From: Candidatus Oscillochloris fontis
GTDB lineage: Bacteria > Chloroflexota > Chloroflexia > Chloroflexales > Chloroflexaceae
Assembly (NCBI RefSeq): GCF_004138135.1
Contig: NZ_RYFD01000027.1
Coordinates: 1-63,329 of the forward strand
Reading direction: 5' to 3'
Length of the DNA stretch: 63,329 bases
Shown here: positions 55,014-63,329 of the stretch, piece after piece
How the letters are laid out: every line of letters starts with the position of its first letter
Numbering within the stretch: the stretch's first letter is position 1
Notes under the pieces: model-generated
Told to the model about the DNA's origin: nothing
Databases searched by the model: none
Seen by the model: the letters and a program-made list of their open reading frames with translations, nothing else
Position numbers and translations under genes: made by a program

Positions 55014-56081
55014 CTAGACTGAGGCTGGTGTCGGGCCACTCTCTTCAATATCTTCAGGTAGTCCATCTTCAGTAGAGGGGATTTCCTCAGGAGTATTTCT
55101 TTGTATATAAATGTACTCCTTACCTACTTCCATGACAATTTTACCTGACTCAATTCTTAAAGTTAGGCTTGGCAATTGCTCTGGGCTTTCCTTCACCAAA
55201 GTTGATAATGGGTCATGAACATAGAGTTCTAGAAACCTAAACATAGTTGGCCCTGCTATTTCTGATAGATGTTTCCAAGCTTGTTCACCGATATACGCAG
55301 ATCCACCAACTGATATAAATGCTCTACTCAATTCTTCTAATTTCATATTTGGAGTAGGATCAAGTACAACTAATATAGGTGTATAACCACTCGACTGACA
55401 ATCCCTTGGAAATTCGAGTTCTTCTCCCCATCTACCTTGACCCGAAGCAGCAATAGTAACACGAATCTTAAATTCATAAGCTTTCTTGTTAATAATACAA
55501 TCAACTTGTCTACCCGCTGTTCCTTGTCCACCTCGTTTTATTGGACTCTTCTTTGCGCTATAAGGAACACCTCCTATTGCATAGGCAATAATTGGCTCAA
55601 AGACATATCCTGTTTCTTGAGCGGATCTATTATCAATATCGTACATCCACTTGCGCCAAAACAATAGTGCAATGAGAGCGGAAGGGCTTAACGTTCCATA
55701 CTGTAACAGACCACGAGGCCCTACCTGATCTACAGTAGGAATAGCCTGAGATTGAAGAATTCTTTCATACTTTAATCGAGCTTTATGAAGAGTAGCTAGA
55801 CAGAAAAAATATGTATCAACATCTGTCTTTATTGCAATAAGCCTTTCAAAAAAACTTTCGAACGCTACTCCGGCTAGCTTTAAATTTTGAAAGCTTTTGG
55901 ATCCAAAAAAGGGAGCAACATTTAGAGGAATATCACGAAATTCCTCTTCTAAGTTGAGGTCTTTGACAATTGTCGCTAACAGATAACAGCACACCGCATC
56001 ATCAAGCGATACAGCAAGATCACTTCCCCCTCCTGTTCGTGCCTTTGTGATAAGTGCTCGCTGTTGCGCAGTTAATCCCAT
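55014..56081 (-). CDS. Putative type II restriction endonuclease
   Basis: 355 residues. Its start overlaps the methyltransferase stop by 10 bases, the usual linkage in restriction-modification systems. Core: GRQVDCIINKKAYEFKIR, with Asp194, Glu203 and Lys205 forming a PD-(D/E)XK-type site (D-X8-E-X-K). I recall a resemblance to ApaLI-type enzymes (FEPIIAYAIGGVPYSAKKSPI...) but cannot confirm it, so the cut site is unknown. GC is far lower than in the jet genes around it: recent transfer. Confidence 0.75.
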   Translation of the reverse strand: MGLTAQQRALITKARTGGGSDLAVSLDDAVCCYLLATIVKDLNLEEEFRDIPLNVAPFFGSKSFQNLKLAGVAFESFFERLIAIKTDVDTYFFCLATLHKARLKYERILQSQAIPTVDQVGPRGLLQYGTLSPSALIALLFWRKWMYDIDNRSAQETGYVFEPIIAYAIGGVPYSAKKSPIKRGGQGTAGRQVDCIINKKAYEFKIRVTIAASGQGRWGEELEFPRDCQSSGYTPILVVLDPTPNMKLEELSRAFISVGGSAYIGEQAWKHLSEIAGPTMFRFLELYVHDPLSTLVKESPEQLPSLTLRIESGKIVMEVGKEYIYIQRNTPEEIPSTEDGLPEDIEESGPTPASV

Positions 56082-57292
56082 AAAGGTAGCCTTTCTATGA
56101 TTGGTTGCTTGAAATATCGCTGCTTCACTAAAGCAATTACTTGTTTAAGAGCAGGGCTAAAACCAGAAGAGAGAGTTGGAACAAAACTTAAAATCTCCCC
56201 TTCTATAAAAAGATCTGATTTAAACATATATTTTTGCAGATCAGCAAATAAACTTCTAGCTATGATTTCACTCATTAATGGTGGAACAGCATTGCCTATT
56301 AATTGCATTTGATCAGCTATACTTCCAAAAAATAGGAAGTCATCAGGAAAGGTTTGTAATCTAGCACATTCTCGAATCGTAAGCGGCCTATGCTCTAAAG
56401 GATGCAAAAATTCTCCTTGCATCCCACCAGTAACGGCTTTTGAAGGTTGATTAGGTTTTAGCCGCTTCACTCCTGATGGTGCACCTCCGCGTTTCTCTGA
56501 TGGGGTACCATCCTTTACTCGGCGAAAAGCACGGCGTCGGAAACTCTCATGCTGCAACTCTTCTGGGAGATCTTTCATGCTTTGACCTGGAGCTAATGAC
56601 AGAGCACGTTTTAATTCTAACCCCTCAAGTTTACGAAAAAAATGCCCTTGTACTATGCCTGGAGCAGAAGTACTAGCAGCGGGGAGATCTGCTAGAGCCT
56701 CCATCACAGAAGGGGTCAATGGCAATTCTTGAGAAGCTAGGTGTGCTCCCGGCGCACCATAAGCTGTATGGGTATACTCTGGGAACGATGGCGACCACCC
56801 TAACCCACCAATTGCAATAACCCGTTTTCGGTGTTGAGGCACTCCAAAATTCGCAGCGTTAACTTTTCGGAGATGAATTTTATATCCCACCTCTATAAGA
56901 GGATCTAGTAAATCTACAACCTTATTTCCATGCTCTGATGTTAAAAATCCTTCTACATTTTCAAATATGAATGCACGAGGTTTTAATTCTGCGATAATCC
57001 GAGAAAATCTTTCGACTAAACTGTTTCTAGCATCATTAATTTTTCGCAATCCCGCTGAAGAAAACCCTTGGCAAGGAGGGCCACCGATAACAACATCTAC
57101 ATGTGGAAATTGGTAATCCTGTGATAGATCTAGATTTTCTATATGAGAACCTAGATTATAGTTATAAGTACTAATTGCTGGTTTGGAATTGTCAACCGCT
57201 TGTATTATCTTAAATCCAACTCTTTGAAAACCAAGAGACAGACCTCCTGCTCCAGAGAATAGATCCAAGACGGTGTAAGATGAATCCATCAT
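56072..57292 (-). CDS. C5-cytosine DNA methyltransferase
   Basis: 406 residues with all main motifs: I (DLFSGAGGLSLGF), IV (GGPPCQGFSSAG, nucleophile Cys74), VI (FENVEGF), VIII (VPQHRKRVIAIG), IX/X (RECARLQTFPDDF, QLIGNAVPP). The target-recognition region lies about 220-290. Protects the host against the endonuclease encoded next. AT-rich codon use, antisense to the Wadjet operon. The preceding small ORF overlaps its start by ATGA. Confidence 0.95.
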   Translation of the reverse strand: MMDSSYTVLDLFSGAGGLSLGFQRVGFKIIQAVDNSKPAISTYNYNLGSHIENLDLSQDYQFPHVDVVIGGPPCQGFSSAGLRKINDARNSLVERFSRIIAELKPRAFIFENVEGFLTSEHGNKVVDLLDPLIEVGYKIHLRKVNAANFGVPQHRKRVIAIGGLGWSPSFPEYTHTAYGAPGAHLASQELPLTPSVMEALADLPAASTSAPGIVQGHFFRKLEGLELKRALSLAPGQSMKDLPEELQHESFRRRAFRRVKDGTPSEKRGGAPSGVKRLKPNQPSKAVTGGMQGEFLHPLEHRPLTIRECARLQTFPDDFLFFGSIADQMQLIGNAVPPLMSEIIARSLFADLQKYMFKSDLFIEGEILSFVPTLSSGFSPALKQVIALVKQRYFKQPIIERLPLWD

Positions 57293-57462: not shown

Positions 57463-57567
57463 TCAGTTCATCGCAATGCGGTAAGCCGCTTCACCAGCTA
57501 ACCGTTCTATCCGCACGTACACGATATGACAAATGATGTTTCGCCCCTGCCCCGTAGGAGAAGTGTG

Positions 57568-58803
57568 ATGCACAAGAATCCCCTCCCCGCCGTGGCCGCG
57601 CTGCTCCTCCACACCCTGCTCGATCGCGCCGAACAGCCGGGGCGCCAACAGGTGATCCGGGTGCGTCTTGTGCCGGCGCAGCACCCCGATTACTTCTCGC
57701 CAGAAGATGTGGCTCCGCGCCAGCAGACCAACCAGATCGTGCAGCAGCTTGCCGACGCCGGGGCGCTGCGTCTACATTGGCAGAAGTGGGAGCAGGGGAA
57801 TTGGTTGGAGGCGCTCGATCTGCTGCCGGAGCGGGCGAGTGATCTCTACCACTTGCTGCAACGCCAACCGCGTACTGATCAGGTTGCCGATCTGCTGGCT
57901 TTGCTCGATACCCAACACCCGCCTCCCGGCTGGTACGCCCGCTTCCTCGCCGGGGTGCGCGATCAGATTGCGGCTGGGCGTGCGCCTACCCCCTTGGTGC
58001 TGGGCGATGCTGCCTTCAATGCCGATCTGCTGCGGCTCCTCGGTACTCTTGCTGAGCTTCAGGCACCCATACTGGAGCGCTCGCTCAGTACGCGCCTCTT
58101 TGGCGATAGCAAGCGCCTGGAGGAGTTGCGCTCGCCTCTGCTGAGTGTCTTGCGTGGCTATGCCCCCGATGCGGCGAGTTTTGCGGGTGATGATGCGGCG
58201 CTGCTGCGTGCCTATGGTATCGAGCGAACCCCCGAATATATCCCGCTGGCCGGGCCGCTGATCTTACAGCCTACGCAGGGCGCGGCGATTGATCTGGCCC
58301 ACTTCAGCCCCTCGCTGGCGCTCTCGGCTGCGATGCTGCGCCAGATTGATGTGGCGGCGTGTTCCGCTACGCGGCTGCTTACGGTGGAGAATGCGACCAG
58401 TTTTACCGAACTGCTCGCGCTCCGCCCGCCCGATCTTCTTCTGCTCTATACCGGCGGCTTTGCCAGCCCGACGCTGCTCGTGTTCCTGCGCTCGATCTGT
58501 CAGCTTCGCCCCGATCTGCCCGTGTACCACTGGGGCGATCTTGATGCCGGGGGGCTGCGTATCCTGGCTCATCTGCGCACGCACCTCGGCGCTATCTCGC
58601 CGCTGGCGATGGATGTAGCCACCCTCCGCGCTTACCAACACCACGCCAAGCCGCTTACTTCCAGCGATCAGCGTGCGCTGCTGGCGCTGAAGAGCCAGCC
58701 CTTGCTCGCCGACTGTCTGCCCCTGATTACCACGCTGCTCGAATTGGGCTGCAAATTGGAACAGGAGGCTCTGGATGTGCGAACAGTGGTGGGCATGCTG
58801 TAG
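57568..58803 (+). CDS. jetD: Wadjet subunit JetD (Toprim-type nuclease)
   Basis: 411 residues from ATG 57568, with TAGGAGAAG upstream. The C-terminal Toprim fold shows the catalytic Glu in LTVENATSF (about 273) and the Asp cluster in YHWGDLDAGGLRIL (about 320-327). The N-terminal part has winged-helix features (LLLHTLLDRAEQPGRQQVIRV...). In Wadjet, JetD cleaves small circular DNA after JetABC has extruded it. The TAG stop is the first three bases of a palindromic element. Confidence 0.92.
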   Translation: MHKNPLPAVAALLLHTLLDRAEQPGRQQVIRVRLVPAQHPDYFSPEDVAPRQQTNQIVQQLADAGALRLHWQKWEQGNWLEALDLLPERASDLYHLLQRQPRTDQVADLLALLDTQHPPPGWYARFLAGVRDQIAAGRAPTPLVLGDAAFNADLLRLLGTLAELQAPILERSLSTRLFGDSKRLEELRSPLLSVLRGYAPDAASFAGDDAALLRAYGIERTPEYIPLAGPLILQPTQGAAIDLAHFSPSLALSAAMLRQIDVAACSATRLLTVENATSFTELLALRPPDLLLLYTGGFASPTLLVFLRSICQLRPDLPVYHWGDLDAGGLRILAHLRTHLGAISPLAMDVATLRAYQHHAKPLTSSDQRALLALKSQPLLADCLPLITTLLELGCKLEQEALDVRTVVGML

Positions 58804-61257: not shown

Positions 61258-61280
61258 GGGTGTGGCTCCTCTCCGTAGAG

Positions 61281-61414
61281 TGTCCGCAGATGACGCACCG
61301 GATGATATGTCCGCAGATGACGCACCGGATGATATGTCCGCAGATGACGCAGATTACGCAGATTTTTAGGATAAAATAAAAACAATCTGCGTCATCTGCG
61401 TAATCTGCGGATAA
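61281..61414. repeat. 27-bp tandem repeats and CTGCG inverted repeat
   Basis: TGTCCGCAGATGACGCACCG + GATGATA occurs at 61281-61307 and 61308-61334; the start of a third unit at 61335 runs into CAGATTACGCAGATT. The opposite arm AATCTGCGTCATCTGCG... is at 61384-61414. The units relate to the repeat at 330-375. Only two full units, so no CRISPR. Confidence 0.8.
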
Positions 61415-61438
61415 ACATCTGTACCGGGGAGTCTGTGT

Positions 61439-62490
61439 ATGTCGGATGATCTCGCTACGACGCTTCAGCAACTCCGCGATCTGCTCGCTAAAGGTGTGTT
61501 GGACGCGGATGAGTATGCGCAGAAGCTTGATCGCCTGCGCAGTAAGTATACCCCCGCAGCGGTCAATGCGCTCCTCGCTGCCGATACTTTACAACCTGCC
61601 CCGGCGGGCAATACCCAGACCATCAAGGATGAGGCTAACGTCGGTGTTGCTGTTGCCGGGCACGTCTATGGCCACATCTTCATCAATGGCAAGCGCGACG
61701 CGGATGCCAGCACACTGATCGCCACCTACCTGACTCAAGTGGCGCGTTTGTGCGAGGTGATGCCGCTACAGGGGGTCTCCCACGAGCGCGAACGTGACGA
61801 TACGCTGCGCCTGGGGCTTGATCAGGTCTACACCCAGTTGGCGACGACGGCACTGTGTGATCGTGAGCAGTTTGCGGTTGCCGATCTGAGCAAAGAAGCG
61901 CTGGATGCCTATCTCCAAGCCCATACCGGGGCGGCGTGTATGCCCGCGCACCGGCGCACCACCTTCCGCAGCCTAGAGCCACACCGCACCGAGGGGATGC
62001 TGGCTGAGTATCGTAGCCCCGATCTCGAACAGACCAGCGCCGCAGATCTCTTGCAGATGGTTGCTACCTGGGAGGGCGATCACCTCACGCTGGTGTTCCA
62101 GGGGCCACAGATTGTCACCGAGGCTATCGCCGCGCAGCGCCATGTGGTATTGATGGGCGAACCCGGCGGGGGTAAGAGTACGGTCTTGCGCTACCTTGCC
62201 CGCCATTTGGCGCGTGCCGGGATCGAGGCGGCGTATGATCTGGCGGCGCATCTTGACGGCTGGGGCGAGCTTGGCCGCCTCTTGCCGATGGTTGTGCCGC
62301 TCTTACCCCTGGCGCGGCTGCTCCAGAGTAGCCCCAAGAATTGTGGCACGGCCAGCGATCTCTGGAACTACCTCGTTGACCACCTCCAACCCAAAGGCAC
62401 CGCCACCGGCCTCGCCGATGCGGTCTGGGCTGAAGTGGAGGCGGGGCATGTCATGCTGCTGCTCGATGGGCTGGACGAAGTGGCCGGACC
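61439..62490 (+). CDS. NACHT/STAND NTPase, interrupted at its Walker B region
   Basis: GGGGAG precedes ATG 61439. The N-terminal 30 residues (LRDLLAKGVLDADEYAQKLDRL) resemble a short SHOCT-like helix pair. A Gly-rich strand region and a helical region follow, then the NTPase with Walker A GEPGGGKST near residue 240 and Walker B LLLDGLDEVAG at the end (about 340-350). NACHT proteins of this size usually continue for hundreds of residues with a sensor region. Here the sequence changes abruptly at about 62490, and the last 14 codons (PLRPPEKSG...) come from another gene's DNA. Possibly a defence NTPase; its sensor part is not in this window. Confidence 0.8.
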
Positions 62491-63329
62491 TTTACGACCC
62501 CCGGAAAAATCTGGATGCCACTATAGGGGCTAAGGCAGAAACAACCTTGGCTATGACTGCGCAGCCCGATCAGGACTTGCGGGTGTACGGTTCAGTGGGC
62601 GTAGATTTGGATCCCGCTTCCGGTCAATATACTTGGTCGGACATTACGTTGGGCGAACTCTACGCAGACTACTATGGAGTTCCCCTAGCCTTCATTCGCG
62701 TCGGCAAATTTTCGGTTAACTGGGGGCAGGGTAGACTTTTTACACCCGGCGACATCATGGCCGACAGCGACGAGGGAACAGCCTTCCGCCTGAGCCTTCC
62801 AACCATGCTGTCCGGCATTTCGGCTATTGCGCTCGCCCAGAAGGATTTTTTTGCCGAGCCGAAGAATCCTTCCTACAGGGAGTTGGCCTACGGCCTGAGC
62901 GCCGACCTGGTGTTCGGTTATCTGAGAACAGGTTTCGGTGCCCGTTATAGGGGAGCCGAAGGGCTCAGAACAGTGTCGTCCCTAAAGACAGTACTCGGGG
63001 GAACTGATTTCTTTACAGACATCATTTTCAATTATTGCGACGGCGAATCCGACTTTGGGCTCCTTTCCGGGTTTTATCGTAGCTGGGGGAACTTGCTTTC
63101 CTATGGAGAGTATTATATCGACGCAACAATCCCGGGAAAGATCGGACATAGTGTCGGTCTTGCACTAGGCTACAGCGGCCTTTTCAGCAAGCCCCTGGAT
63201 GCCGGTGTAAAATGGTTGCACACATGGCAAGACGATTCGGGCTCCTTTACTGCCGGACTCGTTTGGCGTCATCGCTCCCATCTGAGTATAAGCGCTGCCG
63301 TGCCGATTACCTATGGAGCAGAGAGCACG
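62490..63329 (+). CDS. Partial outer-membrane beta-barrel protein (foreign sequence)
   Basis: An open frame without stop to the window end, read as LYDPRKNLDATIG...; it has no start here. It consists of alternating polar/hydrophobic strands ending in aromatic residues, with VGKFSVNWGQGRLFTPGDIM, which is typical of outer-membrane barrels of diderm bacteria (spirochaete-like by feel; not certain). Chloroflexota do not normally carry such porin-like proteins. GC is visibly lower and codon choice different (AGA, GTA, TCC). The join to the NACHT gene is out of frame and within a catalytic motif. Most likely an assembly chimera. Confidence 0.8.

What the first reader, a model, noticed from the sequence alone, without database searches (positions are those of the whole stretch)
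62475..62505. Probable chimeric join inside the NACHT NTPase gene
The frame reads into Walker B (LLLDGLDEVAG) and then loses all NACHT character. Another frame simultaneously becomes an outer-membrane beta-barrel, with lower GC and different codons, open to the contig end. A Chloroflexota cell lacks the outer membrane such a protein needs. The window end therefore probably belongs to another organism.
Basis: partly seen in the sequence, partly recalled or inferred. Interest (0 to 1): 0.7.

Follow-up and report, generated by a model that had tools for sequence, protein, structure and literature searches.

The report
Contig end glued to spirochaete gene
The last 840 or so bases of this Chloroflexota contig are almost certainly a piece of a spirochaete's outer-membrane porin gene, wrongly joined during genome assembly inside an immune-type NACHT gene whose other half sits on another contig, so the join is an error and not biology.

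Summary
NACHT homology ends at 62488; a spirochaete porin fragment runs from 62469 or earlier to the contig end, 63329. The missing C-terminal part of the NACHT–FGE-sulfatase gene lies at the start of contig C98 of the same genome, behind 77 bases of an IS66-type end. The 9 left ends of that IS found at contig ends pair by target duplication with 9 of its 11 right ends; C98's is one of two without a partner, as expected if C95 (this window) lost its true end to a foreign tail. The tail has relatives in 71 of 392 genomes of the spirochaete phylum (best 50% identity) but, of 301 Chloroflexota genomes, only in this one; its model is a porin-like barrel. The join lies in 20 nt, 62469–62488, that code conserved residues of both proteins in different frames (LDEVAG; GWTKWP); 0 of 2000 random replacements scored as well on either side. 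A short-k-mer collision between two genomes in a mixed sample would leave this. Reads were not available. Ordinary assembly artefact.

The parts
61439..62488 (+). N-terminal third (350 aa) of a NACHT/STAND-type NTPase gene of the Chloroflexota host; truncated here
   Evidence: The 11 best relatives match to residue 347-350 and 9 of 11 read through run on to 982-1068 aa; Pfam NACHT, AAA_16, AAA_22, SHOCT and two others hit at E 5e-6 to 5e-4, all below their curated cut-offs
62156..62182 (+). Walker A, GEPGGGKST
   Evidence: read from the sequence and frame; motif name recalled
62456..62488 (+). Walker B region, LLLDGLDEVAG
   Evidence: LDGLD present in the 11 relatives aligned, with changes in some around it; motif name recalled
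62469..62488 (+). 20-nt junction tract GGCTGGACGAAGTGGCCGGA that fits both genes: LDEVAG in the NACHT frame, GWTKWP(D) in the porin frame
   Evidence: profile gains on both sides, 0 of 2000 random controls each; codon comparison with relatives of both families
62489..63329 (+). foreign tail: internal fragment of a spirochaete porin-like beta-barrel gene, running off the contig end (its reading frame reaches back to 62469 or earlier); 14 relatives have 80-255 more residues before it (counted from the preceding stop, so upper limits) and 26-38 after it

Best explanation
The end of the contig is an inter-species assembly chimera. The Chloroflexota genome continues from 62488 through about 27 further nt of the NACHT gene, then an IS66-type insertion, then the rest of the NACHT-FGE gene on contig C98. 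The assembly instead runs from the Walker B codons into a spirochaete porin gene from the same sample, through about 20-21 nt that the two genomes share by chance in different reading frames. Shown: two lineages in one contig, the missing half on C98, the IS end on C98 with an unpaired target duplication, and a tract that fits both proteins. Inferred: that C95 and C98 are neighbours, that a short k-mer was the bridge, and that a spirochaete was in the sample.
For: The C-terminal part of the closest relative finds its 69% partner at G000:C98:79-1983 (E 4e-282; the next best place in the genome by E-value is 36%). C98:1-77 is an exact 77-mer at 11 contig ends; a complete copy of a related element in another genome has a DDE_Tnp_IS66 transposase (L093). 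The 9 left ends found pair by target duplication with 9 of 11 right ends; C98 (GGCGATCA) and C111 are unpaired. Tail relatives: 71 of 392 genomes in the spirochaete phylum, 0 of 40 other genomes among the nearest relatives, 0 of 300 other Chloroflexota genomes; in the own genome nothing else but a match at E 0.24. Both genes are cut inside a domain at one point and the tail lacks the N-terminus of its family. Junction tract: NACHT profile +13.1 bits for LDEVAG (best of 2000 random +7.0); porin profile +12.8 bits for GWTKWP, +17.8 for the 16-codon extension (best of 2000 random 16-codon extensions +10.5). About 24 chance 20-mers and 6 chance 21-mers are expected between a 4.46-Mb and a 3-Mb genome under uniform composition.
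Against: No reads or assembly graph were available, so depth and pairing across the join are untested. The spirochaete itself was not found (best relative 50%), so that its DNA has the 20-nt tract is inferred from protein conservation; by my count, relatives L058 and L068 have 17 and 18 of the 20 bases, others fewer. About 5 of the 17.8 bits come from ten codons further upstream that are plainly NACHT sequence, so part of that gain is unspecific. It is not clear why the true continuation into the IS was lost. Composition alone does not separate the tail from the window. C111 shows that a left end can be missing for other reasons. That C95 and C98 are neighbours rests on the two gene halves and the target duplication, not on synteny or reads.
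Confidence: 0.95

Rival explanations
1. A real acquisition: a piece of spirochaete DNA recombined into the NACHT gene of this Chloroflexota genome at a 20-nt microhomology, with the IS66-type copy on the other side of the break.
For: The tail's frame has no stop over 287 codons; about 27 nt of the NACHT gene are on neither contig; C98's IS copy lacks a duplicated partner, which an IS-mediated rearrangement could also cause.
Against: The foreign piece begins inside a porin gene and runs off the contig; no relative in 300 other Chloroflexota genomes; the IS's terminal 13-mers are not in this contig; a real rearrangement should leave that IS copy's left end next to other DNA, yet the 9 left ends found all pair with other copies.
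Confidence: 0.03
2. The same false join, but made in the laboratory: a ligation or amplification chimera of Chloroflexota and spirochaete DNA, not an assembler error.
For: Would also give two lineages in one contig that ends blindly (no second place in the genome at E 0.001 or better for 61500-63329, 40 of 47 candidates scored).
Against: A random chimera does not need the porin homology to run 20 nt back into the Walker B codons; template switching at a microhomology would, so this is not excluded.
Confidence: 0.15
3. The barrel is a native Chloroflexota gene next to a decayed NACHT gene.
For: Same contig, open frame.
Against: Relatives are in spirochaetes and none in 300 other Chloroflexota genomes; the missing part of the NACHT gene is open and well conserved on C98; monoderm cells have no outer membrane for a porin (recalled).
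Confidence: 0.01

Closest known systems
Inter-genome chimeric contigs of metagenome assembly (PMC7881036, passages seen, some from its abstract)
   Same: Two species joined in one contig; [quoted passage not shown]
   Different: Here the bridge can be placed to 20 nt and the probable true continuation is identified
STAND/NACHT NTPases with a C-terminal FGE (C-type-lectin) domain, some diversified by retroelements, in multicellular bacteria (PMC10907252, passages seen, some from its abstract)
   Same: NTPase of NACHT/STAND type and C-terminal FGE-sulfatase domain
   Different: Split over two contigs and interrupted by an IS66-type element; no retroelement was looked for
Porin-like barrels of Spirochaetota (e.g. 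in DYPP01000004.1, a MAG from a sample named SulCav; 50% identity)
   Same: Aligns over residues 4-279 of 281; motif WGQGRLFTPGD shared
   Different: Only an internal fragment here; no Pfam family was reached
IS66 family
   Same: Inverted terminal GTATCCGTTC, 8-bp target duplication, and a relative's complete copy with a PF03050 transposase
   Different: The interior of the element is not on any contig that carries its 77-base end, so its transposase was not seen in this genome

Membership tests
Inter-species assembly chimera | two lineages on either side of one point | tested here: met
Inter-species assembly chimera | true continuation found elsewhere in the assembly | tested here: met
   C98:79-1983, in keeping with its unpaired target duplication; adjacency itself inferred
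Inter-species assembly chimera | drop in read depth and broken pairs at the join | not testable with these tools
   no reads held
Inter-species assembly chimera | shared short sequence at the join | tested here: inconclusive
   20 nt fit both protein profiles, but the spirochaete's own DNA is not at hand
NACHT/STAND NTPase with FGE domain | Walker A and Walker B motifs | tested here: met
   GEPGGGKST and LLLDGLDE in the frame
NACHT/STAND NTPase with FGE domain | NACHT/STAND profile above its cut-off | tested here: inconclusive
   fragment: NACHT 24.6 bits against 26.7, all six hits below cut-off; full relative L011: NACHT 27.8 against 26.7, nSTAND1 31.7 against 27.1
NACHT/STAND NTPase with FGE domain | C-terminal FGE-sulfatase domain | tested here: met
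   on the C98 fragment, E 1.1e-50
Spirochaete porin-like barrel | sequence relatives in Spirochaetota | tested here: met
   71 of 392 genomes at E 0.001, 14 at E 1.3e-20 or better; four named spirochaete MAGs
Spirochaete porin-like barrel | transmembrane beta-barrel fold | tested here: met
   VIA Z 17.7, rmsd 3.9 over 234 residues; Foldseek E 3.3e-7, TM 0.52; model confidence moderate
Spirochaete porin-like barrel | signal peptide | not testable with these tools
   N-terminus not in the fragment; relatives L058, L059 and L064 as printed have hydrophobic stretches near the N-terminus
IS66 element on C98 | inverted terminal repeats and 8-bp target duplication | tested here: met
   9 pairs of ends, 8 bp in seven and 9 in two; for C98's own copy only one end is known
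IS66 element on C98 | IS66 transposase | tested here: inconclusive
   met in a relative's copy (L093); not seen in this genome

The most novel reading that the evidence does not exclude
A Chloroflexota bacterium really received a fragment of a spirochaete porin gene by microhomology-mediated recombination into a NACHT defence gene.
Probability: 0.03. Interest if true: 0.4.

Novelty: not a real feature. Interest (0 to 1): 0.15.

Why it matters
A genome scored 99.99% complete and 0.06% contaminated still carries about 840 foreign bases at a contig end. Left alone they would credit a porin to a monoderm phylum and a truncated NACHT gene to surveys of bacterial immunity. Seeing that C95 and C98 probably flank one IS66-interrupted NACHT-FGE gene corrects the record.

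Tried and rejected
Composition as sole proof: rejected, since 6-9% of window slices are as deviant. Tail as phage, plasmid or viral DNA: no match to 62400-63329 in plasmids (distant blastn) or to its protein in phage records (tblastn); in viral contigs 3 stretches fitted a peptide pattern, none a relative; one weak phrog hit at E 0.094. Tail as a known family: no Pfam hit even at E 10, NCBIfam TIGR04551 at E 0.018 only. The first scan of genome contigs, with exact peptides, met 42 stretches, none a relative; a degenerate W-G-x-G-x-x-F-x-P-G-D-x-M pattern then found four spirochaete MAGs. Direct overlap between the C95 end and the C98 start: no shared word of 12 nt or more between 62301-63329 and C98:1-400 on either strand. 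The idea that C98 simply abuts C95 was dropped once C98:1-77 proved to be a repeat end. The first search for the IS's other end with the exact 13-mer returned only the 11 known ends; with two mismatches GTATCCGTTCACG appeared at 14 places, of which 9 lie at contig ends and were used and 5 are internal, belong to another repeat and were left out. Other places, with different letters, were not examined. Naming the source genome from the literature did not succeed: the two SPAdes-assembled relatives in PMC6180586 (passages seen) differ in size and contig number. That 77 and 21 are common k values of short-read assemblers is recalled.

Full report
What is there. The window is the whole of contig C95 (63329 bases) of a 4.46-Mb, 139-contig genome, and it ends where the contig ends. 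ORF 61439-62533 shows a short SHOCT-like stretch and a P-loop NTPase of NACHT/STAND type; all its Pfam hits lie below the curated cut-offs. Of 41 genomes searched, the own one included, 32 have a match to it. The 11 best matches outside the own genome end at query residue 347-350, that is at 62488 at the latest. Of the 11 relatives I read through, 9 have open frames of 982-1068 aa; L010 is cut by its contig end and L006 stops at 486 aa within its contig. A second frame, 62469-63329, is open for 287 codons to the contig end.

What the tail is. In 301 Chloroflexota genomes, drawn evenly from a larger group, only the own genome has a match, and likewise in the own genome plus 40 nearest relatives. 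A degenerate pattern on the tail's WGxG..F.PGD.M motif found four stretches in the collection of 84,980 species' genomes, all named as spirochaetes, and all four align with the tail (L038 48%, L035 38%, L037 39%, L036 37% by tblastn). Among 392 genomes of the phylum of the best one, 71 match at E 0.001 and 14 at E 1.3e-20 or better, the best at 50% identity over residues 4-279. That best record is titled Treponema denticola, isolate SulCav; the species label looks doubtful to me. Fourteen relatives carry 80-255 more residues before the tail's start (counted from the preceding stop, so upper limits) and 26-38 after its end, so the tail is an internal fragment. AlphaFold2 on the tail with four relatives gives 16 strands, mean pLDDT 70.2, pTM 0.65, only the best of five models being of that quality. 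Foldseek and VIA-align rank porins first (OmpU, OmpT, OmpF; VIA Z up to 17.7; Foldseek TM about 0.5).

Where the NACHT gene goes. The C-terminal part of the closest relative (G016, the 668 residues after Walker B) matches G000:C98:79-1983 at 69% (E 4e-282) from its tenth residue on; of the 12 other matches in the genome the best by E-value is 36%. That fragment carries the FGE-sulfatase domain. So the host's gene is probably a NACHT-FGE protein of about 1000 aa, of which C95 holds residues 1-350 and C98 about the last 640; some 27 nt between them, judged from the relative, are on neither contig.

Why the contigs break there. C98:1-77 is not part of the gene. The same 77 bases stand at the ends of 11 contigs of this genome, and the sequences diverge right after them. 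In relatives the same end belongs to complete elements with inverted repeats GTATCCGTTCAGG (L093, L096), and the transposase of L093 is of the IS66 family. The other end in this genome reads GTATCCGTTCACG and stands at 9 contig ends, in 8 of them exactly 77 bases from the end and in one 75; five further internal places with these 13 bases belong to another repeat. Equal stubs of 77 bases are what a de Bruijn assembler with k = 77 leaves at a collapsed repeat (recalled). Pairing by target duplication: each of the 9 left ends matches one right end, by 8 bp in seven cases and 9 in two. Two of 11 right ends stay single: C98 (GGCGATCA) and C111 (GTTACAGA). Hence the NACHT gene very probably carries a real IS66-type insertion, and the contig that should carry its left end, C95, carries the spirochaete tail instead, starting about 27 nt plus the duplication before the IS.

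How the join was made. The codons of the Walker B region, GGCTGGACGAAGTGGCCGGA (62469-62488), read LDEVAG in the NACHT frame. In the porin frame they read GWTKWP(D), and spirochaete relatives have GWTDWPD (L058), GWTDWPE (L068) or GWKEWP (L070) at that place; others differ more, such as GWTDEP or GWIGFP. A profile of 14 spirochaete relatives gains 12.8 bits from these six residues and 17.8 from the 16 upstream codons; 2000 random 48-nt stretches of the window in their place gained 0.5 on average and 10.5 at most. The last 5 of the 17.8 bits come from codons that are plainly NACHT sequence, so that part is unspecific. A profile of 11 NACHT relatives gains 13.1 bits from LDEVAG; 2000 random hexapeptides gained 1.1 on average and 7.0 at most. 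So both genes have a claim on the same 20 nt, and the crossover lies in a stretch that both genomes probably share. Under uniform composition about 24 shared 20-mers and 6 shared 21-mers are expected by chance between genomes of 4.46 and 3 Mb; observed sharing at k = 8-17 is 1.2 to 2 times the uniform value. A collision at the smallest k of an iterative assembler is therefore an adequate cause; this step is inferred. A template switch in the library at the same microhomology would look alike.

Results against. No reads, depth or graph were available. Composition is only mildly deviant: GC 53.9% (8.7% of 309 overlapping slices as low), tetranucleotide distance reached by 6.1% of slices; only a likelihood ratio against one spirochaete locus sets the tail apart (0 of 309 slices as low). 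Why the true path into the IS was lost is not explained. C111's missing partner shows that missing ends have other causes too. The spirochaete itself was not found, and the neighbourhood of C95 and C98 was not checked by synteny.

Comparison with what is known. Inter-species chimeric contigs are a known product of metagenome assembly; PMC7881036 (passages seen, some from its abstract) says species of low to intermediate coverage are more likely to enter them. Related Chloroflexales genomes were assembled from enrichment-culture metagenomes with SPAdes and 150-bp reads (PMC6180586, passages seen); whether this genome was made so is not known. STAND/NACHT proteins with FGE-type lectin domains are discussed as putative diversified sensors of multicellular bacteria in PMC10907252 (passages seen, some from its abstract). 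Nothing here is a new kind of system.

Verdict. Confidence 0.95; interest 0.15.

Noticed in passing
G000:C98:1-77 and 19 other contig ends: A multi-copy IS66-type element breaks this assembly at 20 contig ends; one copy interrupts the NACHT-FGE gene. Contig C111's right end (GTTACAGA) has no partner either, so another contig end may be lost or false.
   Followed up: partly
G000:C6:2954, C34:31799, C34:221389, C84:5223, C98:43852: Five internal places share GTATCCGTTCACGATGG(G/A)GGTAAACGGATTG and near-identical sequence over the 90 bases printed: a repeat with the IS66-like terminal sequence, perhaps a non-autonomous relative.
   Followed up: no
G000:C98:1851-2010 and C98:about 132690-132849: The 3' ends of two FGE-type genes on the same contig are 85.6% identical over 160 nt around LRGGSW...GFRL, with scattered changes, as in variable regions of diversity-generating retroelements. 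No reverse transcriptase or template repeat was looked for.
   Followed up: no
window 55014-57292, - strand: Low-GC (about 40%) pair: cytosine-C5 DNA methylase and an ApaLI-like restriction endonuclease (below Pfam's cut-off), perhaps an acquired restriction-modification module.
   Followed up: no
window 57526-58803, + strand: Protein with a Wadjet JetD C-terminal domain (E 5.2e-25); partners not examined.
   Followed up: no
window about 61280-61420: Direct repeats of a tgtccgcagatgacgcaccggatgata unit followed by an inverted copy of part of it, just upstream of the NACHT gene (seen).
   Followed up: no
L006 (G006:C125), about 1120-2577, - strand: The NACHT relative in G006 stops at 486 aa inside its contig while 9 of 11 relatives run to 982-1068 aa: perhaps another broken or shortened copy.
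   Followed up: no
L038 = DYPP01000004.1: The closest relative of the tail sits in a 3.3-Mb MAG titled Treponema denticola from a sample named SulCav; the species label looks doubtful.
   Followed up: no
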